Shown here one piece after another: positions 1 to 42,706 of a stretch of DNA of 63,581 nucleotides. The notes beneath the pieces were generated by a model. That model ran no database searches, had not been told where the DNA came from, and saw only the letters and a program-made list of their open reading frames with translations. The position numbers and the translations under genes are program-made. Within the stretch, counting starts at the first letter, position 1. Each line of letters starts with the position of its first letter. The stretch is taken from the NCBI GenBank assembly GCA_031289615.1, contig JAITPD010000064.1:1-63581 (forward strand), read 5' to 3'. This DNA comes from Lactobacillaceae bacterium. GTDB taxonomy: Bacteria > Bacillota > Bacilli > Lactobacillales > Lactobacillaceae.

Positions 1-126
1 GCCCTTGCCGAATCTAGGCGAACCTTTCCACGCGTGCTTTAGCGCCGTGAAATTGGCAAATTATTTTGCCATTCGACGTGACTCGTGCAGGGCCATCCGA
101 ACGTAAAGAATCTTTAGCGTAGCTGA
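1..126 (-). repeat. Intergenic repeat A, reverse orientation, cut by window edge
   Basis: This is the same sequence family as the A elements at 27434, 33791, 39128 and 42362, read on the opposite strand. The left side is cut by the window edge. It keeps both inner hairpins of the family (TTTCACG/CGTGAAA type and TGGCAAA/TTTGCCA type) and ends in the conserved AAAGAATCTTTAGCG end. Any B partner would lie left of the window. Only about 75 bases separate it from valS. Confidence 0.85.
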
Positions 127-202
127 GAAAACTGACTGACATATGGTTCATAATTACTACAATCTGTTAAATAAATATTGAACAAAACCAAAGGAGATTA
201 TT

Positions 203-2857
203 ATGCGCGAAATTGATATGCCCGGAAAATATGACTCGACAGCTGTTGAAGCAGGTCGTTATGACAAGTGGGTGAACGAAAAACGTTTTGCCCCATCAGG
301 TAACAAAAAAGCTAGTCCATATTCAATCGTGATTCCACCACCAAATGTGACGGGTAAATTGCACCTAGGTCATGCTTGGGATACCGCTTTGCAAGACATG
401 ATTATTCGCCAAAAGCGCATGCAAGGGTTTGATACTTTGTGGTTGCCTGGAATGGATCACGCTGGAATTGCAACCCAAGCTAAAGTTGAGCAACGTTTGG
501 CAGAGCAAGGCATTTCACGTTACGATTTAGGTCGTGAAAAGTTTATCGATCAAGTCTGGGACTGGAAAAATGAATACGCCACTACGATCAAGTCGCAATG
601 GGGTAAGCTCGGGTTATCTTTGGATTATGATCGCGAACGCTTCACGCTGGACGATGGGCTTTCAGACGCCGTTAAAAAAGTCTTTGTGAATTTGTATAAT
701 AAGGGCCTGATTTACCGTGGCGAATACATTATCAACTGGGATCCCAAAGCCCGAACAGCTTTGTCAGACATCGAAGTCATTTACAAAGATATCGAAGGCG
801 CATTCTACCATGTGAAGTACCCATTCACTGATGGAACCACTTTGGACGGTAAGGATTATATTGAGATTGCGACGACGCGCCCTGAGACAATGTTTGGTGA
901 CGTAGCCGTGGCTGTTAATCCAAATGACGAACGTTATCAACACATCATTGGTAAGACAATTAAAGTTCCGCTGGTTGAACGTGAGATTCCTGTGATTGCA
1001 GATGAATACGTTGAAATGGAATTCGGAACGGGAATGGTTAAAATCACTCCAGCGCATGATCCAAATGACTTTGAAGTGGGAAACCGCCATGATTTGGAAC
1101 GGATTAACACGATGAACGAAGATGGTTCAATGAACGAACGAGCTGGCAAGTATGTTGGCATGGATCGTGATGATGCACGTAAAGCGATTGTGAAAGATTT
1201 ACAAGATGCTGGTTGGATGCTAAAGGTTGAGCCTTATACGCACTCTGTTGGTCATTCTGAACGAACGGGTGTCCCAGTTGAAGCACGCCTTTCAACGCAA
1301 TGGTTCGTGAAAATGAAGCCATTGGCAGAACAAGCTTTGGCTATGCAACACACAGATGATCGCGTTGATTTTTATCCTCCTCGTTTTGAAAATACCTTTA
1401 CGACTTGGATGGAAAACATTCATGATTGGGTGATTTCACGGCAACTCTGGTGGGGTCATCAAATTCCGGCTTGGTACAATAAGCAGACTGGCGAGATGTA
1501 TGTTGGCGAAGATGAACCAGAAGATATTGAAAACTGGGAGCAAGACAAGGACGTTTTGGATACGTGGTTCTCTTCAGCGCTCTGGCCATTCTCAACAATG
1601 GGCTGGCCTGATACTGATGCGCCTGACTTCCAACGTTATTTCCCAACCAATACTTTGGTGACCGGATACGACATTATCTTCTTCTGGGTTGCCCGGATGA
1701 TGTTCCAATCAAAGGAATTCACAGGTCGGCGCCCATTCCAAAATGTTTTGATTCACGGTTTGATTCGTGATGAAGAAGGTCGTAAGATGTCAAAATCTTT
1801 GGGAAATGGAATTGACCCAATGGACGTCATTGAAAAATATGGGGCAGACGCCTTACGCTGGTTCTTAGCAACGGGATCAACCCCTGGTTTGGATGTACGG
1901 TTCTCTTATACTAAAATGGATGCCGCTTGGAATTTCATCAACAAGATTTGGAATGCGTCACGTTACGTAATTATGAATTTGACTGATGATACGAAGGTTG
2001 AGATTCCGGCCGGTGAATTAGCACTTGCTGATAAATGGATTTTGGCGCGTTTGAATGCAACAATTGAATCTGTGACAAAGAACTTCGATAAGTTTGAGTT
2101 TGGTGAAGCAGGACGTTCATTGTATAACTTCATCTGGAACGATTTTGCGGATTGGTACATTGAAATGACCAAGGAAACGCTCAATGGTAACGACGAAGCA
2201 GCTAAGCAACGGGTTCAATCTGTTTTGGCATATGTGCTGGATCAGACATTGCGCTTGTTGCATCCAATCATGCCATTTGTGACTGAAGCAATTTGGTTGG
2301 AGATGCCCCATGATGGTGAAACATTGACGGATGCGGCATACCCAGTTGCTCATGCTGAATTGGATGACGCTGTGTCTGAAGCTGATTTCCAAAGCTTGGT
2401 TGACTTGATCACTGCCGTTCGTGCAATTCGGACAGAAGCAAATGCGCCAATGTCAACGACGATCGATGTGATGATTAAGACGGCCGATGTGAATTTGACG
2501 CGGATTTTCAATGAAAACGTAGATTATATCAACCGCTTTGTGAAGCCTAAGACGTTGACAATTGCAGCTGAAATAGATGCACCCAAGTTGGCGATGACAC
2601 AAGTAATTACGGGAGCAGAAGTGATTGTTCCGTTAGCTGAGCTGATTAATTTGGATGATGAAATCGCTCGTTTGCAAGGTGAAGCCAAGAAGTTCCAAGG
2701 CGAAGTGAGGCGCGCGGAAGGCAAGCTTGGCAATGCAAAGTTTGTTAACTCGGCGCCGGAAGCAGTTGTAGCGTCTGAACGCGAAAAGCTGGCTGATTGG
2801 CAGACTAAGTTGGCTGCGACAAATGCCCGGCTTGCTGAATTGAAAGATGCAAAGTAA
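203..2857 (+). CDS. valS: Valyl-tRNA synthetase
   Basis: Charges tRNA-Val with valine in the cytoplasm, with editing of mischarged threonine. The 884-residue product has the usual length for bacterial ValRS. The class I signature HLGH is at residues 54-57 and KMSKS at 528-532. The editing domain lies between them, and the C-terminus is the charged coiled-coil arm typical of ValRS. The ATG follows an AAAGGAG ribosome site at 191-197. No T-box leader is visible in the 202 bases upstream, most of which is an A repeat. A hairpin terminator follows, so the gene is probably monocistronic. Confidence 0.98.
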
Positions 2858-2873
2858 TTGAATTTGAATAACG

Positions 2874-2907
2874 AAGGATCTATCAAAAATTGGTAGGTCC
2901 TTTTTTT
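2874..2907 (+). terminator. Rho-independent terminator after valS
   Basis: The arms AGGATCTA and TAGGTCCT form an 8-bp stem around a short loop, followed by seven T residues. It sits 17 bases after the valS stop. Confidence 0.85.
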
Positions 2908-3022
2908 CGGAAAAATTTGTAAGTAAAACAATTACGTTTCATCTAAATTCTCATTACACTGCTTGGTTATACTAAAGGAGTACCAAAGAACTGAAACTAA
3001 ATACTACATACGGAGAATTAAA

Positions 3023-5308
3023 ATGCTGAAACTAATTAAATGGTCTGGATTGATGTTGGGCGCTTTGACAGTTGTCGGGTTGACGCAAAATGTTTCGGCT
3101 GATTCAACTTCAGCTCATGTCGAGCAAACAAATGTTCAGCTATTGACCCCAAATTCACCAACTCCACAGTATGAATTGGATTTAAAAGTTACAGGTGGAA
3201 TTTTTGATAATGATTTACAAGATGATGCACCAGATACTCTGCTTTTTGGCGGTAATTTTGAAAAGACAAATTCCGTTAATGCTAAATTAAGTTTTGATAA
3301 AAAAGAAGCAGTTATTAAATTTACAGTGACACCTGATCAATCGGCGAACCGCAAAAATATTGGATCTGTCACAATCAAAGCTGATGGAATTAACCCAGAT
3401 AACAATGTTCGCAAAGATGTAACTATTAATAATCTTGAAGATACGTATGTTCCAGGGGTTGTCTATAATACAGCTGGTGTGGGCAATGATTCTGGAGTTG
3501 CTGGACGAATTACTTGGGAGCAAAATGGAAAGCCAATGCTCAAAGATTCAATCAATACTGGCTTTCTTGCTTTAGCTGATGGACTAAAAGAAAATTGGAA
3601 AAAAGGTGGAGCAGTGCAAGGTGGGAAAATTGGATTTGCTAAATTATTGTGCTTGGGAGGACCGTTTGGTGATGCCTTAGATATGATTCTTAAAACCATC
3701 AATGGAAGCGGAAAAGATCAGTATATTGAGGCTCTTGAAGGGATTAAAAACCAAATTAACACATTAAGTGGGGACATCAAAAATTATGCTATGATTGGCA
3801 ATCAAGTAACTCTTTACACTTCATATAGAGCAGAAATAAATGATTTCTTAAAGACGATGAATTCAGATTTAGATAATACTAAAGTGAATCTTCCAATTAA
3901 GGACTTGTATAGGGCAATCGATAAATCACACATCATAGATCCAAGCTATAAAACAATCAGTGACAATGATTTACAGTCTGTGCGCACTGCTGCTCGAAAG
4001 GTGTTTTCAAGCGGAGGAATAGGATTAGACGGGTTTCAGTATGGCTCACAACTGGATGTGTTGACACAATTCGAAAAGTTTGCAAAAGCGGCGACTGGAG
4101 AGATTACTACCAATAAAGATAATATTTTTAAGCAATATTCAGCATATATGAGTTTAAAGCATAATTATAATTCTTCAACTTTTAATGAACGTTTGGCGTT
4201 TAATGATCAAGTTAAACAAGTGTACTTTTACTATTATTTCCCAATCACTTTTGCAATTGCGTTTGAACAATATGATGCGCAAGGTCAAATCAATACTGCT
4301 AACGATGAAATTGCCAGAATTGATCAACTATTAAATTATAAAGAATCGGATGGTATGTTTGATACAAAAATAAGTAAGTTACAAAATTATGAGGTTGGAT
4401 TACGGTTTGCAAGGCTATCAACAGCTGATAAAGATAATTTAGGGAAAACAAGGGATTGGTTTGCTAATAGAATTAAAGATTTACAACGCATTTCCGATGA
4501 TGACAAAGATTTTCTAGGTGAGTATGAAGGTGTAAAAGCAGGTGGAGATGTAACTTCAGTGACAAGTTCAACAACTCGGCAGACTTTTGATTTTTTGAAA
4601 AGCAAGAAGTTGTTTGCAAAGGGATGCGGTAGTGAGATGGATGACCCAACACTTGACCCTTCATTCAAAGATGGGCATGGACATCTAAGCGCGGAAATCA
4701 TTAATTTTAAACATGGGCTGATTTATTCTTATTGGGCCCATAAGTATTTAAAGCAAAATACCGAAACAATCTCAAATTACGAGGCGGCAATTGCAAATTT
4801 TGCGAATGGACATAGTGGTTCTACTTGGAGTTGGCAGATGTCTGGTGATAGTAAGAAATGGTATGCTACTGGCGGATACGTATCCAATGGAACAGGCTCA
4901 AATTTTGGAGTACATGACAGTCAGTATAATTTAATGCATGGTTGTCTTTCGGCAGATGACGTGAAGATGTTAGGACAATCAGCTAAATTTGGGCACACGG
5001 TGTTTAATGAACTGGAAGAAGCTGAATTTAAAAACATGGATGGCTTCTTGTATGCTGGACATGCAAAAAATTCATCAGTCAATGGTGGGTTCTTGAAAGC
5101 TCCAACGTTTACAGCTTCAATTTATCGGTTAAAATCTGATGGAAAGTCAGAAGAAGAAGTTAAAGCATTCAATGAAAATTGGCATTGTCAAAAATGGAAT
5201 GTTACAGATGTAATCCACGATGAAGGAAAGCTGTTTGTTTTACAACCAGCAGATGTGAAAGCTGATGGATGCGTGGATTATACGCCAAGCTATAATTATT
5301 ACAAGTAA
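3023..5308 (+). CDS. Large secreted protein of unknown function
   Basis: I do not recognise the family. The 761-residue product starts with a clear signal peptide (basic MLKLIK, hydrophobic core, likely cleavage after VSA at about residue 26). A Ser/Thr/Asn-rich, beta-looking N-terminal part (about 30-190) is followed by a mainly helical, charged middle. The C-terminal third contains HGHLSAE, a Gly/Ser/Trp-rich stretch and HGCLSADD. There are five cysteines. No LPXTG anchor, lipobox or LysM repeat is seen, so it is probably released. An upstream TTG at 2963 is open in frame, but ATG 3023 has the ribosome site CGGAG at the right spacing and begins the signal peptide. A terminator follows; the gene stands alone. 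Confidence 0.8.
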   Translation: MLKLIKWSGLMLGALTVVGLTQNVSADSTSAHVEQTNVQLLTPNSPTPQYELDLKVTGGIFDNDLQDDAPDTLLFGGNFEKTNSVNAKLSFDKKEAVIKFTVTPDQSANRKNIGSVTIKADGINPDNNVRKDVTINNLEDTYVPGVVYNTAGVGNDSGVAGRITWEQNGKPMLKDSINTGFLALADGLKENWKKGGAVQGGKIGFAKLLCLGGPFGDALDMILKTINGSGKDQYIEALEGIKNQINTLSGDIKNYAMIGNQVTLYTSYRAEINDFLKTMNSDLDNTKVNLPIKDLYRAIDKSHIIDPSYKTISDNDLQSVRTAARKVFSSGGIGLDGFQYGSQLDVLTQFEKFAKAATGEITTNKDNIFKQYSAYMSLKHNYNSSTFNERLAFNDQVKQVYFYYYFPITFAIAFEQYDAQGQINTANDEIARIDQLLNYKESDGMFDTKISKLQNYEVGLRFARLSTADKDNLGKTRDWFANRIKDLQRISDDDKDFLGEYEGVKAGGDVTSVTSSTTRQTFDFLKSKKLFAKGCGSEMDDPTLDPSFKDGHGHLSAEIINFKHGLIYSYWAHKYLKQNTETISNYEAAIANFANGHSGSTWSWQMSGDSKKWYATGGYVSNGTGSNFGVHDSQYNLMHGCLSADDVKMLGQSAKFGHTVFNELEEAEFKNMDGFLYAGHAKNSSVNGGFLKAPTFTASIYRLKSDGKSEEEVKAFNENWHCQKWNVTDVIHDEGKLFVLQPADVKADGCVDYTPSYNYYK

Positions 5309-5312
5309 AATA

Positions 5313-5341
5313 AAACCCGTTTCGTAACTGAAGCGGGTTTT
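5313..5341. terminator. Bidirectional terminator between convergent genes
   Basis: AAACCCGTTTC and GAAGCGGGTTT pair as an 11-bp stem with a 6-base loop, with A-rich and T-rich flanks. It can serve both the secreted orphan on the plus strand and the membrane protein on the minus strand. Confidence 0.85.
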
Positions 5342-5347
5342 ACATTG

Positions 5348-6577: not shown

Positions 6578-6617
6578 AATCTGTCTCCTATGAAATTAAT
6601 GGTGTTCTTTGATATTC

Positions 6618-6676
6618 AAGATTGTAATTTTGTTAATCAGAATCGCTATGCTGATCAACAAAATTGTAAACATCTT
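6618..6676. repeat. Minimal repeat-A-type hairpin
   Basis: A hairpin with arms of about 22 bases (core TTTTGTT.ATCAG and CTGAT.AACAAAA) around the 10-base loop AATCGCTATG. The loop and inner stem match the conserved end of the A repeats (CAGAATCGCTTCGCTG). I read it as a solo end of that family. It lies just upstream of the yhgE-like start, in the divergent intergenic region. Confidence 0.6.
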
Positions 6677-6745
6677 CGCAATTTTAAAACTACTAGGCAG
6701 GCGAAACATTGCAAAGATATTGCATCCCTAACATTGCATAATCAC

Positions 6746-6762
6746 CTATACACAATGTATAG
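6746..6762. promoter_or_regulatory. Probable TetR operator
   Basis: CTATACACAATGTATAG is an inverted repeat with perfect 7-base arms and a 3-base centre. It covers the likely -35 box of the downstream TetR gene and lies between the divergent genes, as expected for an autoregulatory TetR-family site. Confidence 0.7.
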
Positions 6763-6777
6763 TGTTTTTGATATAAT
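6749..6777 (+). promoter_or_regulatory. Promoter of the tetR-type gene
   Basis: A consensus -10 TATAAT at 6772-6777 is preceded at 17 bases by a weak -35 TACACA (4 of 6 matches), which is buried in the inverted-repeat operator. Confidence 0.6.
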
Positions 6778-6851
6778 CATTGTACGATTAGTTTGGAATG
6801 GCAACAATGAACAATTACTTGGTAAATGTCTATCAAATGGAGCAAATTAAT

Positions 6852-7421: not shown

Positions 7422-7572
7422 TCGAATTGCATCATTTTTAAGCCAGTTATTTTGGTATGATTAGAACAGAGAAATTAAGCATATAGTAAGAGTTGGACAA
7501 CATTTTTTTGCTAACTAAAATCGCTCTGTTTTATAGCCAGCAACACAGTTTAATCGAGCGGGAGGAACCGAA

Positions 7573-8886: not shown

Positions 8887-8894
8887 TACGATTT

Positions 8895-8919: not shown

Positions 8920-9100
8920 CTTTGATTCCGGACCTTTTATATACGAGAATATTACTAAAATTACCGTTTAATGACATTGATAGTTATCAATAGCATTTAT
9001 TTTGAATACCGTGTTATCCTGATTTCATTGATTGGGAAAAGTAACCAATTGATGAAAAATGTCGCTCGTCGCTGTAAGTTTAGAAAGTAGGAAATTAAAA

Positions 9101-9703
9101 ATGAAGCTACATAACGTATTGATGAAGTCACTTGCTCTCGGAGCCGTGGTTGTCTCATTGAGCCCCCTCGCTAGTGTTGCAACGTTGGCCCATGCTGATG
9201 GAACTGTGAAGTCAACTTTGGGAGATGGGATCAAGGTTTTGACAACCAAGCCTGTTGATTGGACGGGGATTGAAGGCGGAGCAACTACAGACAGAGATGC
9301 AGCTGGACATCCAATTTATATTCATGATATCGATGAAGCCACACAAACGATTACTGTTTCATCAAATCATCTTGCTAGTTTAGATTTTGTTATTAAATCT
9401 AAAGAAGATAGTCGTGACATCTTTGCTGGGTTAGGTAACCTTGATGATGCTGCTACTAGTCTCTCGGCATCTAACAAAATTAAAAAAGTTGAAGTAAATG
9501 TTCCAGCTACCGTTTATCAAAATACACATGCACATGATGGATATGTTGATTATAACGGAAGATTTGGAGAATATGAATATCGATTTGGATTGCGAGACGT
9601 TGACTTGACTGGTAAAAATGAAGTTGTGTTGACATTCTATGCAAAGGATACTGGATTGTCTTGTGACTATACTTCAACAGTCCATATCAAGCGGACGTTC
9701 TAA
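9101..9703 (+). CDS. Small secreted protein, family member 1
   Basis: A 200-residue protein of unknown function. The signal peptide has a strong hydrophobic core (ALGAVVVSLSPLASVA) and probably cleaves after AHA at about residue 32. The mature part is polar and beta-rich, with one cysteine near the C-terminus. It is paralogous to the next gene: the signal peptide and the last 37 residues, ending HIKRTF, are nearly the same, while the middle is diverged. An upstream TTG or ATG could extend it, but ATG 9101 starts the signal peptide and matches the paralogue exactly. No membrane or wall anchor is seen. Confidence 0.85.
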   Translation: MKLHNVLMKSLALGAVVVSLSPLASVATLAHADGTVKSTLGDGIKVLTTKPVDWTGIEGGATTDRDAAGHPIYIHDIDEATQTITVSSNHLASLDFVIKSKEDSRDIFAGLGNLDDAATSLSASNKIKKVEVNVPATVYQNTHAHDGYVDYNGRFGEYEYRFGLRDVDLTGKNEVVLTFYAKDTGLSCDYTSTVHIKRTF

Positions 9704-9793: not shown

Positions 9794-10387
9794 ATGAAGC
9801 TACAAAACGTATTGATGAAGTCACTTGCCCTTGGTGCAGTTGTTGTATCATTGAGCCCCCTCGCTAGTGTTGCTATACTTGTGCACGCTGACGGAATTGT
9901 TAAGTCAGAATTGGGAGATAAGGTCTTAACGACAAAAGAAGTTGACTACTTGGGCTTCCATGGTGGCAAGCAAGTTACGGATTATTCAGATGCAGGTGGT
10001 AAATCTACAATTACAATTAATTCAAATCATCTTGATGGAATTAAATATGAGATTGCAACCGAAGAGAACGGACGCGATATTTTTACTGGATTCACTAAAA
10101 TGGAAAGGAGTCCATTTTCACCTATGAATGCGCCAGTTGTTGCTAAAATTCACCAAGCTGAATTAAACGTTCCTGGCAAAATTGTTTGTAATGATGGTAA
10201 CGTTGATGATGGACATCCAGAAGTCGTTATGGTTAACCCTAGTTATAACGGGAAAACAGTGTACGAAATAAATTTACGTGATGTTGATGTAACGGGAAAG
10301 AACGAAATTGTAACAACTTTCTACGCTAAGGACACAGGATTATCAGCTGATTATACTGCAACTTTCCATATTAAGCGGACGTTCTAA
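9794..10387 (+). CDS. Small secreted protein, family member 2
   Basis: A 197-residue paralogue of the gene at 9101. The first 28 codons, the ribosome site region (AGGAAATTAAAA) and the 3-prime end, including the bases just past the stop (GCGGACGTTCTAATTTAAAT), are almost identical, so the duplication spans the whole gene. The central region differs (about half identical by eye), which suggests divergence under selection. It has a signal peptide and one cysteine, and no anchor. Function is unknown; a secreted bioactive or surface protein is possible but unsupported. Confidence 0.85.
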   Translation: MKLQNVLMKSLALGAVVVSLSPLASVAILVHADGIVKSELGDKVLTTKEVDYLGFHGGKQVTDYSDAGGKSTITINSNHLDGIKYEIATEENGRDIFTGFTKMERSPFSPMNAPVVAKIHQAELNVPGKIVCNDGNVDDGHPEVVMVNPSYNGKTVYEINLRDVDVTGKNEIVTTFYAKDTGLSADYTATFHIKRTF

Positions 10388-10390: not shown

Positions 10391-10580
10391 AAATGCGTTG
10401 AGCTAGTTATACAACTTCTTGGTCATTTTTCACTTGCTTGGTGGCTTTTTCAATAAAGATAGTAAGTGGCGACACGGTCCCATTCGACATGAATCGTGCA
10501 GGGCCATCCGAACGTAAAGAATCTATAGCGAAGCTGATCAAGCAACTGATAATTATGACACAACTAGCACAATGCGTTAA
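10391..10580 (-). repeat. Deleted A-B composite repeat
   Basis: Read on the minus strand this is the left half of repeat A (10489-10540) joined directly to the right half of repeat B (10421-10488). The join is at CGAATGG, a 7-base word present in the tips of both A and B, so it looks like a deletion between short direct repeats in an A-B pair. It is bounded by an outer inverted repeat (AATGCGTTGAGCTAGTT at left, AACTAGCACAATGCGTT at right). Short ORFs here are by-products. Confidence 0.75.
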
Positions 10581-12949: not shown

Positions 12950-13117
12950 CGTTCAAAACCGGTGTGCCATGCTCTGATAAACGCCTTCTACACCTTTGAA
13001 CTAAACGATTCTAAGCAACTTAATTAACGTCACGTTTCACGCAACGTCATTAACTCACTTAGCTCGTCTGTTCAATTTTTCACTTCGTTCAAAACCGGTG
13101 TGTCATGCTCTGATAAA
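12950..13117. repeat. Intergenic block bounded by 32-bp direct repeats
   Basis: The word CGTTCAAAACCGGTGTGCCA plus the next 12 bases occurs at 12950-12981 and, with a single C-to-T change, at 13086-13117. The copies are 136 bases apart in the same orientation. The DNA between them has no ORF and is rich in AACGTCA-like and TTTCAC-like words. The second copy ends at the extended -10 of the next gene. Confidence 0.75.
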
Positions 13118-15554: not shown

Positions 15555-15757
15555 TAGAACCGCTATGCTACTCAAGTAGATTACAAAAACATTGGACATT
15601 TTATTTAAGCGTGGTGACTTGAGATGATGATAGTAGGTGATCAAGCGAGGTAGCGGCACCAATTCGACTCATTTTGTAAAAATGTGTAGTCGAATGGGAC
15701 CGTGTCGCCACTTACTATCATGATCGAAAAGACAACACGCAAGTGAAAAATGACCAA
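15555..15757 (+). repeat. Minimal A relic followed by a full repeat B
   Basis: TAGAACCGCTATGCTA at 15555-15570 is a relic of the A end (compare CAGAATCGCTATGCTG). A complete B element follows at about 15592-15757. B is an imperfect inverted repeat with arms of about 70 bases, running from TTGGACATTTTATTTAAGCG to CGCAAGTGAAAAATGACCAA. Its tip CATTTTGTAAAAATGTG forms a small hairpin and is the same as in the copy at 39404. Confidence 0.8.
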
Positions 15758-15819
15758 TGTGTATCTAGTTAATAGTAATCTTTGGCTTAATTGCGCGATA
15801 ATTCAGAAATTAAATAATT

Positions 15820-22139: not shown

Positions 22140-22165
22140 GGAGTTTGCAATGTTGTGATTAAAAT

Positions 22166-22237
22166 TATCAGCGAAGCGATTCTATCGTCGGATAACCAGT
22201 CCTTGCCGAACGTAAAGAATCTTTAGCACAGCTGATA
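22166..22237 (-). repeat. Internally deleted repeat A (72 bp)
   Basis: Both ends of repeat A are present (TATCAGCGAAGCGATTCT and AAAGAATCTTTAGC...GCTGATA), but the central about 95 bases with the two inner hairpins are gone. The join is at the word CGG(AA/CA) shared by both sides of the missing piece, as expected for deletion between TTCGG direct repeats. Confidence 0.75.
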
Positions 22238-22367
22238 ACTTGAATTACAATAATGCACATTGCAACGGTAAGTTACACAACTTGTCATCATCCAGTTGAA
22301 TTTATAGTGTAAAACAGGTATTATTAAAACTATTATCTAGATTTGTTAAGCAAAGGAGTGCGCGACC

Positions 22368-23266: not shown

Positions 23267-23530
23267 ATAACATTGTGCAGGTTATGAAATATTGTACTTT
23301 GGTTGATCAGCGGAGCGATTCTGTCGTCGGATGGTAGTCCCTGCCGAATCGGGGTGAACAATCAGACTAACACCAGACCTATCAGTTAGTCTGATTGACG
23401 AATTATTTCGTCTTTCGCCCCGATTCGTGTAGGACAATCCGAACGTAAAGAATCTTTAGCGGAGCTGATCAACCAAAGTAAAACAAAACATTTTTAAGAT
23501 AACGTGCTTCATAACCCGCACAATGCACTA
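23267..23530 (-). repeat. Repeat A with exchanged inner hairpins and outer inverted repeats
   Basis: The A core is 23297-23478, bounded by a perfect 15-bp inverted repeat (CTTTGGTTGATCAGC and its complement). An outer inverted repeat (CATTGTGCAGGTTATGAA at left, TTCATAACCCGCACAATG at right) bounds the whole element. The inner part differs from all other copies, yet still has two hairpins: ATCAGACTAA/TTAGTCTGAT and GACGAA/TTCGTC. They sit on a stem made of CGAATCGGGG and CCCCGATTCG. Confidence 0.85.
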
Positions 23531-27402: not shown

Positions 27403-27433
27403 ATAGAGTGTTGTGTATCAATGTACCTTGATT

Positions 27434-27597
27434 TATCAGCTTCGCTATAGATTCTTTACCTTTCGGATTTGCCCTGCACGATTCATGGCGAATGGCAAAA
27501 TAATTTGCCAATTTCACGGCGCTAAAGCACGCGTGAAAAATTTCGCCTAGATTCGGCAAGGGCTAGCCATCCGACGACAGAATCGCTTCGCTGATCA
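27434..27597 (+). repeat. Repeat A (full copy)
   Basis: An imperfect long palindrome with ends TTATCAGCTTCGCT and AATCGCTTCGCTGATCA. Inside are two further hairpins: TGGCAAA (27493-27499) with TTTGCCA (27504-27510), and TTTCACG (27512-27518) with CGTGAAA (27532-27538). Folded, this is a three-way junction. It is followed after about 11 bases by repeat B. Confidence 0.85.
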
Positions 27598-27608
27598 GCA
27601 CAAGCACA

Positions 27609-27780
27609 TGGTCATTTCATTCAAAGCGTGGTTGATTGAGATGATGATAGTAGGTGATCAAGCGAGGTAGCGGCACCAATTCGACTAAATTTCGGTTCGC
27701 CGAAATTAAAAGTCGAATGGGACCGTGTCGCCACTTACTATCCTTATCGAAAAGCCAGCACGCAAGTGAAAAATGACTAA
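27609..27780 (+). repeat. Repeat B (full copy)
   Basis: A long imperfect inverted repeat from TGGTCATTTCATTCAAAGCG to GCAAGTGAAAAATGACTAA. The tip is AATTTCGGTTCGCCGAAATT, itself a hairpin. Short ORFs on the minus strand recur at the 42535 copy but not in other copies, so I treat it as non-coding. Confidence 0.85.
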
Positions 27781-27818
27781 GAGCTTTCACAATTAGCACT
27801 AAGCGTTAAATAATTTTA

Positions 27819-27860: not shown

Positions 27861-27935
27861 ACGAAACGGCTAGACTTATATGGTAAAATTGAGTTATGAG
27901 CGTATAGGGTTAGTCAGTAAAGTTTAATGCCCATG

Positions 27936-27953
27936 TCAGAATCGCTATGCTGA
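27936..27953. repeat. Minimal A-end relic
   Basis: TCAGAATCGCTATGCTGA repeats the loop and inner stem seen at 6637-6655. It forms a 4-bp hairpin around AATCGCTATG and looks like another solo end of repeat A, 73 bases before the next gene. Confidence 0.5.
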
Positions 27954-28026
27954 TAAACCAAACGGCCAAGACATTTAAAAAATACGCAACATTCAACTAT
28001 AAATCAACTTTAAAAAGGACGTTCAA

Positions 28027-33224: not shown

Positions 33225-33309
33225 AGCAAGTTAGTTTCTCTTTTTGTTTGCAGAATGAGCACAACGGTTTTACACTTGACACGAATCAAAGAAAAAGAGG
33301 TTGGGAATC

Positions 33310-33765: not shown

Positions 33766-33790
33766 AATGAAACTTTTATAGGTATAAAAC

Positions 33791-33960
33791 TTGGTTGCTC
33801 AGCTTCGCTAAAGATTCTTTACGTTCGGATGGCCCTGCACGATTCATAGCGAATGGCAAAATAATTTGCCAATTTCACGGCGCTAAAGCCCGCGTGAAAA
33901 GTTTCGCCTAGATTCGGCAAGGGCTGGTCATCCGACGACAGAATCGCTTCACTGCTCAAC
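33791..33960 (+). repeat. Repeat A (full copy)
   Basis: The same structure as 27434-27597, with both inner hairpins. The ends read TTGGTTGCTCAGC and CTGCTCAACCA, so they differ from other copies (TGATCA) but still pair over TGGTTG/CAACCA. It sits between convergent genes. Confidence 0.85.
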
Positions 33961-33986
33961 CATAATACAATATTATAATGCGTACA

Positions 33987-34288
33987 TTGGTCATTTTATT
34001 TAAAGCGTGTTGGTTTGAGATGATGATAGTAGGTGATCATCGTGTTTACAAAGGCTGAGCTTCGGTTATAAGTACACTTTCCGTTTCACTACGTCGCTAC
34101 GCTTTGGTAGCAAACCTGAAAATGGTCTTATCCCGATAGCTCATAACGCCTTTGTGCACACTCCTTAAAGCGAGGTAGCGGCACCAATTCGACTAAATTT
34201 TTGCCCGCAGAAATTAATAGCCGAATGGGACCGTGTCGCCACTTACTATCTTTATCGAAAATACAACACGCAATTAAAAAATGACCAA
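33987..34288 (+). repeat. Repeat B interrupted by a third palindromic element
   Basis: The B arms are intact (TTGGTCATTTTATTTAAAGC at left, AAAAAATGACCAA at right), with tip AATTTTTGCCCGCAGAAATT. The left arm is split between GATCA and AGCGAGG by a 129-base insertion. Confidence 0.85.
34040..34168 (+). mobile_element. Element C, palindromic insertion inside repeat B
   Basis: A 129-base segment absent from the other B copies. Its ends are imperfect inverted repeats over about 38 bases (GTGTTTACAAAGGC and GCCTTTGTGCACAC, then CGGTTATAAG and CTTATCCCG). An inner hairpin GCTAC/GTAGC is present. No ORF and no clear target duplication are seen. It is MITE-like in size and structure. Confidence 0.6.
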
Positions 34289-34422
34289 GATGGTGTACAA
34301 CTTGTACTAAGAGTTTAAATAATGATTATTTTTAATTTGTGAGATGTCTTTTCAATAATGATTGTAAATCACTAAAACAATATCCTAAAATAGAGAGCTA
34401 TATTTCACGATATAGTTCTTTT

Positions 34423-35505: not shown

Positions 35506-35537
35506 TATTCAGTCCTAAAAATGTATTTATATTGTTA

Positions 35538-35566
35538 TTGACATTATACTAAATTCCGGCATAATA
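35538..35566 (+). promoter_or_regulatory. Promoter of nadBCA
   Basis: A perfect -35 TTGACA at 35538-35543 and -10 ATAATA at 35561-35566 (or CATAAT one base earlier) are spaced 17 (16) bases apart. Confidence 0.75.
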
Positions 35567-35635
35567 GTTAAGAGCATAAGTGGTGCTAAAACGCTTACAA
35601 AAGGTTAGTTATAAGGATTCTAGGAGATTATTCTT

Positions 35636-37105: not shown

Positions 37106-37934
37106 AAATGCATTGCAGAGTTTTATCAATGAAGACGTTGGACGCGGAGATTTAAGCGCCGAATTAATTTTCCAAGATAACCAAGTCAGCGCAGGGCACT
37201 TCTTGTTGAAGGATGATGGCGTTGTTTGTGGATTACCGCTGGCGAAAATGGTTTATGATCTGTTAGGTGGAGGCGTTGAGGTTGAATTGTTGGTATCAGA
37301 GGGAAGTTATCATCCGGCTGGGACAGTTTTGGCAAAAGTTAGTGGACCAATTCGGACTATATTAACTGGTGAACGGTTGATTTTAAATCTGTGGCAACGA
37401 ATGAGCGGAATTGCGACCATGACAAATCAAGCTGTTACTGAGTTATCTGATTCGAACATTCGGATTTGCGATACGCGCAAGACAGCGCCAGGGTTACGCG
37501 TATTTGATAAATATGCAGTTAGAGCAGGTGGAGGTGTCAATCATCGCTTTGGTTTGTATGATGGGGTGATGCTAAAAGAAAATCATATCGCCTTTGCTGG
37601 AGGAATTGCAAAAGCGGTGGCAACTGTACGCCAACAGACGGGGCAAATGGTGAATGTTGAAGTTGAGGTTGAAACTTTGGCGCAATTGAAAGAAGCGATT
37701 GCTGCAAACGCTGATATTATTATGTTTGACAATCGTTCGCCGCATGAAGTTAAAGAATTTCAAGCTTTGATGCCTGAGCACATTGCCAGTGAAATCTCTG
37801 GTGGCATCACATTGAGCAATCTCGCACAATATCGCGGAACCGGTGCAAATTATATCTCGTTAGGGTATCTCACCAATGCGGTACAAAATTTGGATATTAG
37901 TTTTTTAAGTGACACAGTCGTAAAAGGAAATTAA
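37086..37934 (+). CDS. nadC: Nicotinate-nucleotide pyrophosphorylase (carboxylating)
   Basis: Converts quinolinate and PRPP to nicotinate mononucleotide. Motifs include NEDVGRGDLSAELI, CDTRKTAPGLRVFDKYAVRAGGGVNHRFGLYDGVMLKENHI (catalytic and PRPP residues), VEVEVETLAQ and SGGITLSNL. It contains 282 residues. The start lies inside nadB, so translation is coupled. Confidence 0.96.
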   Translation: MNQLLVKNALQSFINEDVGRGDLSAELIFQDNQVSAGHFLLKDDGVVCGLPLAKMVYDLLGGGVEVELLVSEGSYHPAGTVLAKVSGPIRTILTGERLILNLWQRMSGIATMTNQAVTELSDSNIRICDTRKTAPGLRVFDKYAVRAGGGVNHRFGLYDGVMLKENHIAFAGGIAKAVATVRQQTGQMVNVEVEVETLAQLKEAIAANADIIMFDNRSPHEVKEFQALMPEHIASEISGGITLSNLAQYRGTGANYISLGYLTNAVQNLDISFLSDTVVKGN

Positions 37935-37936
37935 TC

Positions 37937-39034
37937 ATGGAAAACGTATTAGATAGTTATCAAAATCAATTAATACCAGAAGAATATTTAGCAATGCCTG
38001 AGGATGAATTGAGGGCGCGGATTAAAAAGGCCAAAGCTACTTTAGGTGATAAATTATTGTTTTTGGCGCATCATTATCAAAAAGATGAAGTAGTCGAGTT
38101 TGCAGATCAAGTTGGAGACTCGTTAGCCTTAGCTCAAATTGCTCAAGCCAATAAAAAAGCTGATTATATCTTATTTTGCGGTGTGCATTTTATGGCTGAA
38201 ACGGCAGATATTTTGACACAAGACCGTCAATCAGTAATTTTGCCCGATTTGGCAGCAGGTTGTTCAATGGCTGATATGGTTAATGACAATCAATTAGAAC
38301 GGGCCTGGCATGATTTGCAAATTAAATATCCAGATGAAATTATTCCAATCACATACGTAAATTCAACGGCTGCAGTCAAAGCGTTTGTTGGTGCACACGG
38401 TGGGGTGACTTGTACTTCATCAAATGCAGCGAGTGTTTTAGAATGGGCCTTCACGCAAAAGAAACGGGTTTTCTTTTTGCCTGACCAACATCTTGGAAGA
38501 AATACAGCAGTTGCGATGGGGATTCCGCTAGAAGAGATGGGGATTTGGGATCCAATTGCTAACGATTTAATTGCAGATAAAACGGATCTTAAAATTATTT
38601 TGTGGAACGGGTGGTGTTCTGTTCATCAACAATTCACTGGTGAGCACGTGGATGAGGTCCGGCGGCAATATCCAGGGATTAAGGTGATTGTTCATCCCGA
38701 ATGTCAATATGAGGTTGTCCAAAAAGCTGATGTTTCAGGTTCAACTAATAAGATATTGAACACGGTTAAGGATGCGCCGGCTGGAAGTAAGTGGGCGGTG
38801 GGGACAGATAATAATCTTGTGGCCCGGATGGCAAGTGAAATCAAAGACAAGGAAGTTGTTTTCTTAAATCCAATTTCATGTGCCTGTATGACGATGAATC
38901 GAATTAAGTTACCGCATGTTGCTTGGGCGCTAGAAAATTTGGTGAAGGGCAACGTTGTGAATCAAATCAAGGTTGACCCAGTGATTGCTAAAAATGCAGC
39001 AAAAGCATTGGATCAAATGCTCCTATTAAGCTAA
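37937..39034 (+). CDS. nadA: Quinolinate synthase
   Basis: A 4Fe-4S enzyme that makes quinolinate from iminoaspartate and dihydroxyacetone phosphate. The three cluster cysteines are visible in AAGCSMAD, HPECQYEV and PISCACM. FLAHHYQKDEVVEFADQVGDSL and GVHFMAETADIL are typical. The 365-residue product matches the Bacillus-type long NadA. It is the last gene of the nad operon, followed by a terminator. Confidence 0.97.
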   Translation: MENVLDSYQNQLIPEEYLAMPEDELRARIKKAKATLGDKLLFLAHHYQKDEVVEFADQVGDSLALAQIAQANKKADYILFCGVHFMAETADILTQDRQSVILPDLAAGCSMADMVNDNQLERAWHDLQIKYPDEIIPITYVNSTAAVKAFVGAHGGVTCTSSNAASVLEWAFTQKKRVFFLPDQHLGRNTAVAMGIPLEEMGIWDPIANDLIADKTDLKIILWNGWCSVHQQFTGEHVDEVRRQYPGIKVIVHPECQYEVVQKADVSGSTNKILNTVKDAPAGSKWAVGTDNNLVARMASEIKDKEVVFLNPISCACMTMNRIKLPHVAWALENLVKGNVVNQIKVDPVIAKNAAKALDQMLLLS

Positions 39035-39054
39035 AACATAATATGAACTACCAA

Positions 39055-39089
39055 AAAAATCTGCCAACTTTCAAAGTTAGCAGATTTTT
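39055..39089. terminator. Terminator after nadA
   Basis: AAAAATCTGCCAACTTT pairs with AAAGTTAGCAGATTTTT (one mismatch). A-rich and T-rich flanks would allow use in both directions. Confidence 0.85.
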
Positions 39090-39127
39090 ATTATAAATAG
39101 GGTTAGCGCTGAAATGTTATCTGTTGT

Positions 39128-39394
39128 TTGAGCAGCTTCGCTAAAGATTCTTTACGTTTCGGATTTGCCCTGCACGATTCATTATGCGTTTTGTTAGCGA
39201 TTTATCGCTTACCAAAACACGATCCGCAGTCCTTAGTTGGGCAGCTGTGTCATACAGCTGGGCGACTTAGTAACGGAGGTGGTTCGAATTGCAAAATAAT
39301 TTGCAAATTTCACGGCGATAAAGCACGCGTGAAAAGTTTCGTCTAGATTCGGCAAGGTCTGGTCATCCGACGACAGAATCGCTTCGCTGACCAG
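39128..39394 (+). repeat. Repeat A with a 100-base insertion at its tip
   Basis: The ends and both standard inner hairpins are present. Between the GATTCAT word and the first inner hairpin there are about 105 extra bases (39183-39287). These contain two more hairpins: GTTTTG...CAAAAC (with GCGA/TCGC) and CAGCTGT/ACAGCTG. A short ORF that spans the element is not conserved in other copies. Confidence 0.8.
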
Positions 39395-39403
39395 CAAAGA
39401 CAT

Positions 39404-39568
39404 GGGTCATTTTATTCAAGTGTGATGGATTGAGATGATGATAGTAGGTGATCACGCGAGGTAGCGGCACCAATTCGACTCATTTTGTAAAAATGTGTAG
39501 TCGAATGGGACCGTGTCGCCACTTACTATCATGATCGAAAAGCCAACACGCAAGTGAAAAATGACCAA
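39404..39568 (+). repeat. Repeat B (full copy)
   Basis: B arms from GGTCATTTTATTCAAG to GCAAGTGAAAAATGACCAA. The tip is the CATTTTGTAAAAATGTG type, identical to the copy at 15592. It lies between the convergent nadA and rpiR-type genes. Confidence 0.85.
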
Positions 39569-39622
39569 GCCTGTTCCACAACTAGCAGGCCGTGTCAAAC
39601 TTAGATGATCAAACAGCCTAAT

Positions 39623-40474
39623 TTAAAACAAATCAATCAAACTTCCGCGCACCTTATTCCACAAAGCCTCGCCCTCATCAAAGAAGCTTAACGAGTACAA
39701 ATGGTAAATAGAATGAACCACAAACATCTGCGACAACAATGTCGTTCCACTATCGCGCAAAGGATAATCCGGATTTCCATTCAACGTTTTCAAAATATAA
39801 TCTGAGTTAATCCCTAATGTTGATTTAGTATTGCTTGTAATCGCCACAATCGGCATCTGCATTTGTCGAGCCAGACGCAAAACTGGATTAATCTTTGGAT
39901 CCTCACCAGTTTTTGAAATAACAATTATCATCTTGGGTTCTTCGTTCACCAAGATAAGGCTTTTTAAATAATGCGGATCTGTCACATGTTGCACTTGTTT
40001 ACCAAATAATAGGAAGATATTGGCAAAATCATCAGCAACGTGTTTCGAGAATAACGTTGAATAGATATAGATTGTCTTCGTTTCACGAATCGCCATCACG
40101 GTCCCCATCAACTCACCTACATCAATTTTATCCTCAACCTCATCCATCACATGTTTCCAGCGTGTTGACATTTTTGCGAGGACTTCCCGTTCGTTTTCGC
40201 TCCCATCAACATTTGAAATACTTACTTTTTGATTAATCATCTGCTTTTCATAACGAATCAGATAGTCACGGAACTCAGAATAAGTCTGAAATCCCAAACT
40301 TTTAATATATCGAATCACGGTCGCTTCAGAAACACCAATCTCATTTCCAATCGTCCGCGCATTTTTATTGATTCCTCGCTGGAAATTTTTAAGCATATAT
40401 TGAGCAACCATTTTTTGCTGATGTGAAACATTTGGTATTGAATCCTCAAACATAAGGTTAATTTGTCTATTCAT
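39623..40474 (-). CDS. RpiR/MurR-family transcriptional regulator
   Basis: A 283-residue regulator with an N-terminal RpiR-type helix-turn-helix (IGNEIGVSEATVIRYIKSLGF) and a C-terminal SIS sugar-phosphate-binding domain (TKTIYIYSTLFSKHVADDF, MIIVISKTGEDPKI). The ORF is open to 40513, but ATG 40474 follows GGAAGGTGA. It is divergent from the secreted lipase-like gene and may control it; its ligand would be a phosphosugar. Confidence 0.88.
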   Translation of the reverse strand: MNRQINLMFEDSIPNVSHQQKMVAQYMLKNFQRGINKNARTIGNEIGVSEATVIRYIKSLGFQTYSEFRDYLIRYEKQMINQKVSISNVDGSENEREVLAKMSTRWKHVMDEVEDKIDVGELMGTVMAIRETKTIYIYSTLFSKHVADDFANIFLLFGKQVQHVTDPHYLKSLILVNEEPKMIIVISKTGEDPKINPVLRLARQMQMPIVAITSNTKSTLGINSDYILKTLNGNPDYPLRDSGTTLLSQMFVVHSIYHLYSLSFFDEGEALWNKVRGSLIDLF

Positions 40475-40622
40475 TGAGTCACCTTCCTTTACAAAAATGA
40501 TTTTGAAAATCATGATTTCTTAAATATAACACTGTTTTATGATTTTGCAGTGACCGTTCTTTGTGTAAACGCTAGAAAATCTTAAAATCTGGATTTTGTC
40601 CTAATTACCGTACCCCCCCCAT

Positions 40623-40638
40623 TTGCAAACGGTTTCAC
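40623..40638. promoter_or_regulatory. Probable cre (CcpA) site
   Basis: TTGCAAACGGTTTCAC matches 15 of 16 positions of the cre consensus WTGNNARCGNWWWCAW. It lies in the divergent region between the RpiR-type regulator and the lipase-like gene. A run of eight C residues immediately precedes it (40613-40620). Confidence 0.7.
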
Positions 40639-40762
40639 AAACTAAATGTGAATATTTTATAGTTAAAGCTTGTTAAATTTATGATTCTGTGTAGATAATT
40701 ATCTTGTAGGAAAATTCATATTCTCAATGAGAGAGAACCAGAAAGAGGAAAACATAATTCTT

Positions 40763-42322
40763 ATGCAAAAGAACACATTCACCAAAATTGGAGCAACTCT
40801 AATTATCGCATCAGCCCTAGTTGGTGGTTCAGTGAAATTAATTACCGCTAACAACAACGCAAATGCTGAAACGCAACAGGGAACCCAATTGCTAGTTCGC
40901 CCTGAAATGGCAGTTGCAAATAATAAAGCAATTAACAAGACTACTAAATCATATATTAACGTTCCTGAAACCGCGCTGACAACCAATCAATACCAAGATT
41001 CAACTAAGTACGACCCAGCATTGGCGCAAATCGGAGCTGTCTTGAGCCAATCATGTTATAGTAATGAGCTTGATGACGACGACAAACCTGGCTACACAAA
41101 CCAAGATCTACATATTTTAGGGTATGATGATATTCAGCTTTATAATTTCGATTTAGATAGTGAAGGTGCATACAATTCTGCAACCAACATTGCCTTCACA
41201 ATCGCACATAAAACTGTGACCATCGATGGTAAAAAAGCAAACACATTCATCATCGTTTTGCGCGGGACTCCAAGCAGCAAGGAATGGCAAGGGGACTTTA
41301 GCTACCAATTGAACTCTGGCGACAACGGTGCAAAGTATTGGGAAAAGAATATCTATGACCTTGGGAATGAAGTACATCGGACGTTTACAGAATACTGCAT
41401 GTCACACGAAGAGACTATTAGGCCTGAAACTGAAAACAAGCTCTTTGTGACTGGTCATAGCCGTGGTGGCGGAACTTCTGAATGCTTAGGTTATTTGTTT
41501 GATAAGGATATTCAAAATAATACTGGAATGATGGCAAGTCATAGTGAGATCAATGCAAATGATGATCCTATTTCTAAGAAGAATGTCGCCGTTTATGCAA
41601 TTGCTCCAACGCAAGCTTACCATCCAACAACTGACGCCAACACAGATGATTCTGAAGTTAAGGCTAATGAAGATGGTGAATACGATAACATCCAAGACGT
41701 TGTGAACCCAATGGACTTTGTGCCAACGAATCCACTAACTAAGTGGGGGTATCAACATATTGGTCACATTAACAACCTGTTTAACCCTAAGACTGAAACC
41801 GAAGCAAATTATCAAAAGTTTATGCAAACTTACGAGAAGATTGCCCACCTTGGTAAAAACGATTCAAGTCAATTGTATTCATTGGTAGCAATCAAAAAAG
41901 AATTAGGATTTGGAACTGGAACTCAATTCAAGACTTTGAAGGATCGCGTTTCACATGATCAAAATGGAATGAATGATTTCTCTGAGGCCATTCATGCTGT
42001 TTCACCTCAATTGTCGGACTACGATGTTCCAGCTGACTTGACGTTCCAAACAGCTGACAATCAAACTGAAACTGAGAGCCTTTCTCCACAAGAGTTTTTC
42101 CACTCATATGCAACTGCCTTTATTGGTGAGCAACCATTCTCAAGCCCTAAGCTCCAAAGTGCCGTTAGTGGTCTCATGTCAAATGTGGCTCAGACTTCAC
42201 CAAAGGCATTAGCTTACCAAAGTGTTTTGACACACTTGCCATTGACTCCTAATGGTCCTAATATTGCAAATCATCTGTGCACAACTTATATTGCTTGGTT
42301 GTTTACAAATGCTGATAAGTAA
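40763..42322 (+). CDS. Secreted class 3 lipase-like alpha/beta hydrolase
   Basis: A 519-residue exported protein with a signal peptide (core IGATLIIASALVGGSV, likely cleaved near NANA-ET). The nucleophile elbow GHSRGGG (GxSxG) follows the FVTGHS strand. The acid is likely the Asp in NPMDFVP. This matches lipase class 3/DUF2974-like hydrolases. The C-terminal 150 residues are helical and unassigned. ATG 40763 begins the signal peptide; ATG 40727 is in frame but lacks a ribosome site. Substrate (lipid or other ester) is unknown. The cre site upstream suggests catabolite control. Confidence 0.8.
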   Translation: MQKNTFTKIGATLIIASALVGGSVKLITANNNANAETQQGTQLLVRPEMAVANNKAINKTTKSYINVPETALTTNQYQDSTKYDPALAQIGAVLSQSCYSNELDDDDKPGYTNQDLHILGYDDIQLYNFDLDSEGAYNSATNIAFTIAHKTVTIDGKKANTFIIVLRGTPSSKEWQGDFSYQLNSGDNGAKYWEKNIYDLGNEVHRTFTEYCMSHEETIRPETENKLFVTGHSRGGGTSECLGYLFDKDIQNNTGMMASHSEINANDDPISKKNVAVYAIAPTQAYHPTTDANTDDSEVKANEDGEYDNIQDVVNPMDFVPTNPLTKWGYQHIGHINNLFNPKTETEANYQKFMQTYEKIAHLGKNDSSQLYSLVAIKKELGFGTGTQFKTLKDRVSHDQNGMNDFSEAIHAVSPQLSDYDVPADLTFQTADNQTETESLSPQEFFHSYATAFIGEQPFSSPKLQSAVSGLMSNVAQTSPKALAYQSVLTHLPLTPNGPNIANHLCTTYIAWLFTNADK

Positions 42323-42361
42323 TTAATATGTAGAGCTGGTGGTATAAGATTGTGCTTTGCT

Positions 42362-42526
42362 TGATCAGCTTCGCTAAAGATTCTTTACGTTTCGGATTTG
42401 CCCTGCACGATTCATGACGAATGGCAAAATAATTTGCCAATTTCACGGCGCTAAAGCACTCGTGAAAAAGTTCGCCTAGATTCGGCAAGGGCTGGTCATC
42501 CGACGACAGAATCGCTTCGCTGATCA
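42362..42526 (+). repeat. Repeat A (full copy)
   Basis: Ends TGATCAGCTTCGCT and AATCGCTTCGCTGATCA, with both inner hairpins, between convergent genes. Repeat B follows after eight bases. Confidence 0.85.
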
Positions 42527-42534
42527 TAAAAACC

Positions 42535-42706
42535 TTGGTCATTTTATTCAAAGCCTGGTGGTTTGAGATGATGATAGTAGGTGAACCAGCGAGGTAGCGG
42601 CACCAATTCGACTAAATTTCGGTTCACCGAAATTAAAAGCCGAATGGGACCGTGTCGCCACTTACTATCTTCATTGAAAAGCCACCACGCAAGTGAAAAA
42701 TGACCA
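42535..42706 (+). repeat. Repeat B (full copy)
   Basis: B arms from TTGGTCATTTTATTCAAAGC to GCAAGTGAAAAATGACCAG. The tip is AATTTCGGTTCACCGAAATT. The arms contain TGGTGG opposite CCACCA where other copies have different but still partly paired bases. Confidence 0.85.

What the first reader, a model, noticed from the sequence alone, without database searches (positions are those of the whole stretch)
1..42706. Family of paired, structured intergenic repeats (A and B)
At least nine loci (near 1, 10391, 15555, 22166, 23267, 27434, 33791, 39128 and 42362) carry one or both of two unrelated long imperfect palindromes, A and B. Four loci carry a complete A-B pair in the same order. All are outside genes, three of the four full pairs lie between convergent genes, and none contains a conserved ORF. 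Each palindrome would form a stem of about 50-70 bp in DNA or RNA. They may be non-autonomous mobile elements, transcription/decay boundaries, or sites for a nucleoid or recombination protein. I do not know of a named family that matches.
Basis: partly seen in the sequence, partly recalled or inferred. Interest (0 to 1): 0.85.

Follow-up and report, generated by a model that had tools for sequence, protein, structure and literature searches.

The report
Weissella modular multi-hairpin mobile element family
The scattered hairpin repeats are two arms of one mobile, non-coding DNA element that sits at roughly two hundred places in this Weissella genome, and its relatives in other Weissella species keep the fold while the letters change, which suggests the folded form matters.

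Summary
Confirmed and extended. All nine loci are real. A (about 172 nt) and B (about 175 nt, or 307 nt with a third hairpin) are not independent repeats: they are two arms of one 400-560 bp element bounded by a decayed inverted repeat (ACGCGTTGTGCTAGTTRTG). Nine of 18 copies with two good ends have direct flanking repeats of at least 6 bp (shuffled mean 1.4), so it moved like a non-autonomous (MITE-like) transposon. The genus is Weissella. A 464-kb sample holds 47 elements in gaps between genes, about 200 per genome by extrapolation. The B core was found in 7 of 28 Weissella species and in none of the 79 other genera in an order-wide sample. Two features do not fit a plain MITE. The ends have decayed (pairwise identity 0.39-0.49) while the arms are mostly kept (0.80-0.97). 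In two related groups the arms co-vary copy by copy, and a GGA/GGA internal loop stays unpaired; in G022 G-U mismatches exceed A-C, but not in the window's own genome. Arms differ as modules at orthologous sites. I read it as a BOX-like composite mobile element whose arms are selected in folded single-stranded form (RNA or ssDNA). Mobiliser and function are not identified.

The parts
1..133 (-). A arm, cut by the start of the contig, just upstream of a valyl-tRNA synthetase-like gene (203-2857)
10393..10577 (-). Deletion derivative: outer inverted repeats (10393-10411, 10559-10577) enclosing the 3' arm of B fused to the 5' arm of A; flanked by the direct repeat TAAATTA
15590..15764 (+). B arm; B core 15631-15723; apparent remnant of an A foot just upstream (by eye)
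22163..22241 (-). Mini-A: both outer arms of A with the inner part deleted, upstream of a guanylate kinase-like gene
23298..23479 (-). A arm, subtype 2 (different inner hairpin), with outer inverted-repeat remnants on both sides
27412..27806 (+). Full element: A 27426-27602, B 27606-27788 (core 27648-27746), right outer repeat 27788-27806
33771..34320 (+). Full element with extra internal hairpin C in the 5' arm of B (about 34040-34168): A 33790-33963, B 33986-34296 (core 34166-34254)
39093..39600 (+). Full element: A 39124-39397 with an extra module at about 39183-39283, B 39403-39574 (core 39442-39534)
42326..42735 (+). Full element: A 42354-42531, B 42532-42715 (core 42575-42673), right outer repeat 42715-42733

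Best explanation
A genus-specific (Weissella) family of composite, non-coding, MITE-like mobile elements. Each full element is an outer terminal inverted repeat enclosing two or more long hairpin arms (A and B here; other arms in other species), so the strand can fold into a branched structure. It was inserted with a 7-8 bp target duplication, most likely by a DDE transposase acting in trans (the duplications are shown; the enzyme is inferred and not found). After insertion the ends drift but the arms persist, because the arms work in folded single-stranded form, as RNA or as ssDNA hairpins bound by a protein through conserved purine-rich internal loops (inferred). Arms are modules that are deleted, gained and exchanged between copies at fixed sites (different arms at orthologous sites are shown; gene conversion is the inferred route). 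Status: one element with both arms, shown; mobility, supported in this species; selection on folding, strongly supported in two related groups and weaker in this genome; RNA versus ssDNA unresolved (I lean 60:40 to RNA).
For: One element: outer repeats flank A-B and A-only copies; end pattern 86 matches against 3 for the control; 27 of the 30 best end matches have an A or B body within 150 nt inside; solo outer palindromes exist. Mobility: 9 of 18 two-ended copies have direct flanking repeats of 6 bp or more, 7 of 18 of 7 or more; with partners shuffled 300 times means 1.4 and 0.5, maxima 5.3 and 3.4. Folding: B core 8 of 19 pairs with two-sided change over 39 copies of two species; A arm 15 (plus strand) or 13 (minus strand) of 47 pairs over 27 copies; in G022 the own right arm is the best or tied partner in 29 of 33 copies (paired 0.91 within, 0.71 across), in the W. 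confusa group in 12 of 13 (0.90, 0.71); isolated mismatches in G022 18 G-U to 3 A-C distinct contexts (p = 0.0015); GGA present on both arms at the loop in 31 of 33 and 13 of 13. Body kept, ends decayed (control). Different arms at orthologous sites.
Against: No mobilising transposase was found, though only 30 of the 86 end sites were fetched, and the end pattern is near background in the other 27 species (0-2 matches each). Nine of 18 two-ended copies lack a direct repeat of 6 bp, and with fixed borders the excess over 34 end pairs is modest. In this genome isolated mismatches show no G-U bias (A 7:6, B 6:6 distinct contexts), and in the W. confusa group raw counts are even (15:14, one A-C site shared by nearly all copies; distinct contexts 7:2). 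Arm co-variation within copies is slight here. A folds better as the minus strand in 37 of 41 copies, B as the plus strand in 39 of 51, so one transcript would not present both arms in favoured form. Copies share ancestry; no tree-aware test was run.
Confidence: 0.6

Rival explanations
1. Palindrome correction without function: replication template switching copies one arm of an imperfect palindrome from the other, so arms stay complementary although nothing selects for the fold.
For: Template switching is reported to create and help maintain hairpin stems (PMC8794818, passages). It would explain matched changes of whole stems between copies. In this genome there is no G-U excess.
Against: It should also erase internal loops, yet GGA stays on both arms in 31 of 33 and 13 of 13 copies and the core internal loops persist across species. 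It predicts no excess of G-U over A-C, yet 18:3 distinct contexts are seen in G022.
Confidence: 0.15
2. A cis-acting RNA element of neighbouring genes: terminator, mRNA stabiliser or processing site, kept where it helps the gene.
For: At 27.4, 33.8 and 42.4 kb the A body starts 24-32 nt after the stop codon of the gene before it. After the fact, A+B copies in tandem gaps are more often sense than antisense (14 of 18, p = 0.03).
Against: No overall orientation bias here (20:14, p = 0.39) and none obvious in relatives; A-only copies lean the other way (2 of 10 sense, p = 0.11).
Confidence: 0.12
3. Nested insertion: A and B are themselves separate small transposons that inserted more recently into older outer palindromes, so the youngest sequence is in the middle.
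For: Conservation falls outwards, from mostly 0.80-0.97 in the arms to 0.39-0.49 at the ends; an extra hairpin C sits inside B and an extra module inside A.
Against: The decline passes through intermediate arm feet (0.60-0.72) rather than being abrupt; A-only copies lie inside the same outer repeats; the linker between A and B is shared by two unlinked copies (L012 and window 27600). Target duplications flanking A or B alone were not tested.
Confidence: 0.1

Closest known systems
BOX elements of Streptococcus pneumoniae and S. suis
   Same: Composite, modular, interspersed repeats with terminal inverted repeats and target duplications, predicted stem-loop RNA, an inner module that may be absent or repeated, and apparent dormancy (PMC3049150, passages)
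   Different: Different genus; two long unrelated arms of opposite fold polarity rather than a boxB array; copy-by-copy co-variation of arms; ends decayed while arms are kept; different arms at orthologous sites. Sequence homology to BOX was not tested.
MITEs in general (such as Correia and RUP elements)
   Same: Short, non-coding, inverted-repeat ends, target duplication, base-paired (definition from PMC3049150 passages)
   Different: No parent insertion sequence found; the ends are the least conserved part of the element.
REP/REPIN elements with RAYT (Y1) transposases
   Same: Extragenic palindromes in high copy, hairpins
   Different: Far larger than 20-40 nt; flanked by target duplications; no Y1_Tnp (PF01797) match in this genome while 5 of 14 control genomes ring. 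The RAYT link is recalled.

Membership tests
MITE | Terminal inverted repeats | tested here: met
   Outer repeat pattern 86 matches against 3 for control; 34 candidate end pairs, some sharing an end
MITE | Target-site duplication on insertion | tested here: met
   9 of 18 with 6 bp or more, shuffled mean 1.4; the other 9 of 18 lack one; modest excess with fixed borders
MITE | Short and non-coding | tested here: met
   About 400-560 bp between outer ends; 38 of 47 sampled have no called ORF over them, 9 of 47 are overlapped by an ORF of 73-124 aa that I take as spurious but did not search
MITE | Related autonomous insertion sequence with the same ends | tested here: inconclusive
   None seen, but only 30 of 86 end sites were fetched and contigs break at elements
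MITE | Ends at least as well conserved as the body (typical rather than strictly defining; recalled) | tested here: not met
   Ends 0.39-0.49, body mostly 0.80-0.97 in copies picked by their bodies; in loci picked by their ends the bodies still average 0.80
BOX element | Modular composite of outer modules plus optional inner modules | tested here: met
   Outer repeats with A, B and C present or absent
BOX element | Homologous boxA/boxB/boxC sequences | not tested
   No BOX sequences were fetched
REP/REPIN-RAYT | Y1 (RAYT/IS200-like) transposase in the genome | tested here: not met
   PF01797: 0 matches in this genome (95.6% complete), 5 of 14 control genomes ring
REP/REPIN-RAYT | Palindromic unit of 20-40 nt | tested here: not met
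   Arms are about 170-310 nt; size range from the PMC3733652 abstract in a search listing
Known structured RNA family | Match to an Rfam model | tested here: not met
   0 of 4227 families at gathering score over the window; two weak matches far below their cut-offs over one full element at E up to 5

The most novel reading that the evidence does not exclude
The arms are themselves functional modules: folded RNA or ssDNA hairpins, with a defined strand and conserved purine-rich internal loops, recognised by an unknown partner. The two arms of an element point in opposite directions (A on one strand, B on the other, like the head-to-head pairs in the relative G022), so the element is a carrier that disperses and exchanges a repertoire of recognised hairpins. 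That would be a kind of structured-nucleic-acid mobile element that I do not know to be described.
Probability: 0.35. Interest if true: 0.8.

Novelty: new variant of a known kind. Interest (0 to 1): 0.58.

Why it matters
Small interspersed repeats are usually treated as decaying parasites whose hairpins are by-products. Here the transposon ends rot while the hairpin bodies are largely preserved, and in two related groups the arms co-vary copy by copy. That makes the old question of why bacterial repeats keep their folds testable, because a genome can offer dozens to over a hundred natural replicates. The elements also coincide with contig breaks in Weissella assemblies and could serve strain typing in a genus met in food.

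Tried and rejected
Searches without yield: Rfam at gathering score and at E up to 5; plasmid and phage records (no match); the exact B core in genome contigs (no match, but that collection may leave out the window's own genome and near relatives). A second pattern, from the relatives' core, gave 6 stretches named W. confusa.

Considered and dropped: a T-box-like core (resemblance by eye and recall only). IS200/IS605 or RAYT mobilisation (no PF01797 in this genome, and target duplications). Location between convergent genes as a rule (p = 0.60). A clean empty site in G005 and G008: their 30-bp site looks by eye like paired ends, so it may be a deletion remnant rather than a pre-insertion state. 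Target duplications in the W. confusa group were looked at by eye only and are not claimed.

Limits: match counts are lower bounds (at most 40 candidates scored per genome, 141; stricter filters). The sample is 463,581 of 2,010,465 bases. The arm-distance table kept copies with hairpin C and one G022 row with an over-long core, and I draw no claim from it; one search kept that row as well; one search used 33 of 34 G022 copies (that row dropped) and 13 of 13 of the W. confusa group. The zone table used 25 of 41 A-B copies, those without C, and these were picked by matches to A and B, which flatters the arms; the control picks loci by their ends instead (30 best of 86). The strand-energy test had no random control. 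The 6 W. confusa copies have the same cores as 6 of the 13 copies of the W. confusa group, so they are not added.

Full report
WHAT IS THERE. A is a palindrome of about 172 nt; B is about 175 nt, or about 307 nt when a third hairpin (C) sits in its 5' arm, as at 33986-34296. Four loci carry full A-B pairs in one order. The others are A alone (1-133, 23298-23479), B alone (15590-15764), a mini-A with its middle deleted (22163-22241) and a fusion of half of B with half of A (10393-10577).

ONE ELEMENT, NOT TWO. When copies from the whole genome are lined up with their flanks, a common outer inverted repeat appears: about TTAACGCGTTGTGCTAGTTRTG to the left of A and its complement to the right of B. 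A's stem continues outwards as AATATTGTACTTTGGTTGATCAGC and B's as AAACACCTTGGTCATTTT. The full element is therefore an outer stem with two long arms, about 400-560 bp. The end pattern has 86 matches in the genome against 3 for the reversed control. Of the 30 best end matches, 27 have an A or B body within 150 nt inside. In the other 27 Weissella species the end pattern has 0-2 matches each, near its control (0-1). Solo or nearly empty outer palindromes also occur.

NUMBER AND PLACE. The genome is 2.01 Mb in 65 contigs and belongs to a genus of which 28 species are held. A sample of 463,581 bases holds 47 elements, about 200 per genome if extrapolated. They lie in gaps between longer ORFs although 84-91% of each sampled contig is coding; 9 of 47 are overlapped by an ORF of 73-124 aa that I take as spurious without having searched it. 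Orientation relative to tandem genes is 20 sense to 14 antisense (p = 0.39). After the fact, A+B copies lean to sense (14 of 18, p = 0.03) and A-only copies to antisense (8 of 10, p = 0.11). Convergent gaps are not significantly enriched (6 of 43 against 30 of 276 gaps, p = 0.60).

IT MOVED. Of 18 copies with two well-preserved ends, 9 have a direct repeat of at least 6 bp and 7 of at least 7 bp at the border; with right flanks shuffled 300 times the means are 1.4 and 0.5 and the maxima 5.3 and 3.4. A second scan with fixed borders gave 34 end pairs (some share an end) with a modest excess over shuffles (best 0.85 extra matches, at length 7). Reading its output by eye, exact 8-bp repeats stand at the same borders in L162 (TAAATCTA), L172 (TAGCTTTA) and L183 (TATTTATA), and with the right border moved by one or two bases in L166 (TTATAATA) and L042 (TATATTTA). 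This resembles a DDE-type transposon (from general knowledge); the enzyme was not found. No Y1 transposase match is present.

RELATIVES. A covariance model of the B core (R1; 39 copies) finds 109 matches here, 82 in G022, 11 in G011, 4 in G007, 3 in G005, 3 in G006 and 2 in G008: 7 of 28 species at E up to 0.01, with at most 141 candidates scored per genome. Sampling the family gave 5 of 397 genomes, all of this genus; sampling the order gave 1 of 395, this genome itself, from 80 genera. These larger searches use stricter filters that lose weak matches. The clades share the near-invariant core GCGAGG...TGTCGCC or GCGAGG...CGTCGCC with matched changes on both sides: GGTAGCGGCACC/GGGACCGTGTCGCC, GGTAGGAGCACC/GGGACTCTGTCGCC and GGACAGGAGCACC/GGGACTCCGTCGCC. 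A DNA query holding A and B matched relatives only in the B core, in G022; the relatives carry other arms.

THE FOLD IS KEPT. RNAalifold on 39 B cores of two species gives 19 pairs, 8 with two-sided changes. The A arm has 15 (plus strand) or 13 (minus strand) of 47 pairs with such changes over 27 copies of this genome. In G022 each copy's left arm pairs best, or ties for best, with its own right arm in 29 of 33 copies: 0.91 Watson-Crick within a copy, 0.71 across copies, while left arms differ by about 23% between copies. In the W. confusa group it is 12 of 13, 0.90 against 0.71. In this genome the gain within copies is slight, at most 0.07. Isolated mismatches in the stems, counted as distinct contexts: G022 18 G-U, 3 A-C, 16 other (p = 0.0015 for 18:3); W. 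confusa group 7, 2 and 2, but raw counts there are 15 and 14 because one A-C site is shared by nearly all copies; this genome A 7 and 6, B 6 and 6, hence no bias. GGA stands on both arms at the internal loop in 31 of 33 and 13 of 13 copies, unpaired in the alignments. Copies share ancestry, so these counts are not independent events, and I did not run a tree-aware test.

POLARITY. Predicted RNA folding favours one strand: the plus strand of the core in 33 of 33 G022 copies and 13 of 13 of the W. confusa group, B plus in 39 of 51 and A minus in 37 of 41 copies here; no random control was run, and the four full window elements are mixed (two lower on each strand). The A alignment agrees (consensus energy -51.0 minus, -33.8 plus). 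A and B thus point in opposite directions, like the head-to-head core pairs in G022 (7 of 26 distinct loci). One transcript would show only one arm in its favoured form; this argues against a simple single-RNA function and leaves ssDNA, bidirectional transcription or independent arms open.

ENDS ROT, BODY STAYS. Over 25 A-B copies without C, mean pairwise identity per 15-nt bin is 0.26-0.36 in flanks, 0.39-0.49 at the ends, 0.60-0.72 in the arm feet and 0.80-0.97 in the arms, except 0.71 in the B loop. These copies were picked by their arms, which flatters the arms, and misalignment may lower the ends. As a control, in 30 loci picked by their ends the A and B bodies still average 0.80 (range 0.62-0.97, subtypes mixed). 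A freely decaying transposon should lose its body as fast as its ends.

ARMS ARE MODULES. At one orthologous site, G006 and G007 carry the full element, G011 keeps the outer ends but a different third arm, and G005 and G008 hold only about 30 bp resembling paired ends. Two more sites that look orthologous by their flanks (L201/L216 and L202/L217) also differ in arms. In this genome A has two subtypes that share the outer stem but not the inner hairpin.

MECHANISM. Most likely a BOX-like composite mobile element that spread by transposition in trans and whose arms are then kept because the folded form does something. Shown: the unit, its ends, target duplications in about half of the testable copies, modularity, a core shared within the genus, co-variation. 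Inferred: DDE transposase, selection rather than mutational correction, a binding partner, gene conversion as the swap route. Template switching (PMC8794818, passages) is the main rival; it should erase the internal loops and give no G-U excess, which is not what is seen in G022, though the lack of a G-U excess in this genome is what it predicts.

KNOWN OR NEW. The closest published analogue I found is the BOX element of streptococci (PMC3049150, passages). The MITE review PMC10969869 has no occurrence of Weissella or Lactobacill in its main text. Seven paper searches were made; four held the word Weissella, one Lactobacillus (16), and two were on BOX and on template switching. None of the titles and abstract starts listed describes such repeats in Weissella; I saw the 8-20 best listed of 15-391 hits, most of them without the word Weissella, and subscription journals are mostly absent. 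This is no proof that the family is undescribed.

Noticed in passing
window 9059-9703 and 9794-10387: Two tandem ORFs sharing DNA repeats (families D7 and D9, 83% and 76% identity), with no Pfam match.
   Followed up: no
window 12950-12981 and 13086-13117: A 32-bp direct repeat, 97% identical, 136 bp apart.
   Followed up: no
window about 27930-27965: A sequence like a leftover A 3' foot (CAGAATCGCTATGCTGATAAACC) downstream of the 27.4-kb element, seen by eye.
   Followed up: no
window position 1 and several contig ends of G000 and G022: Contigs begin or end inside or close to elements, so the family probably limits assembly in this genus.
   Followed up: partly
L204, L205 and L206, L210, L214, L215, L217: Two kinds of alternative palindromic arm occupy the third-arm slot in the W. 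confusa group: one beginning TCGGAGCGTTCAAA (L204, L205), one GC-rich with GGCTGGGGGCG (the rest).
   Followed up: partly
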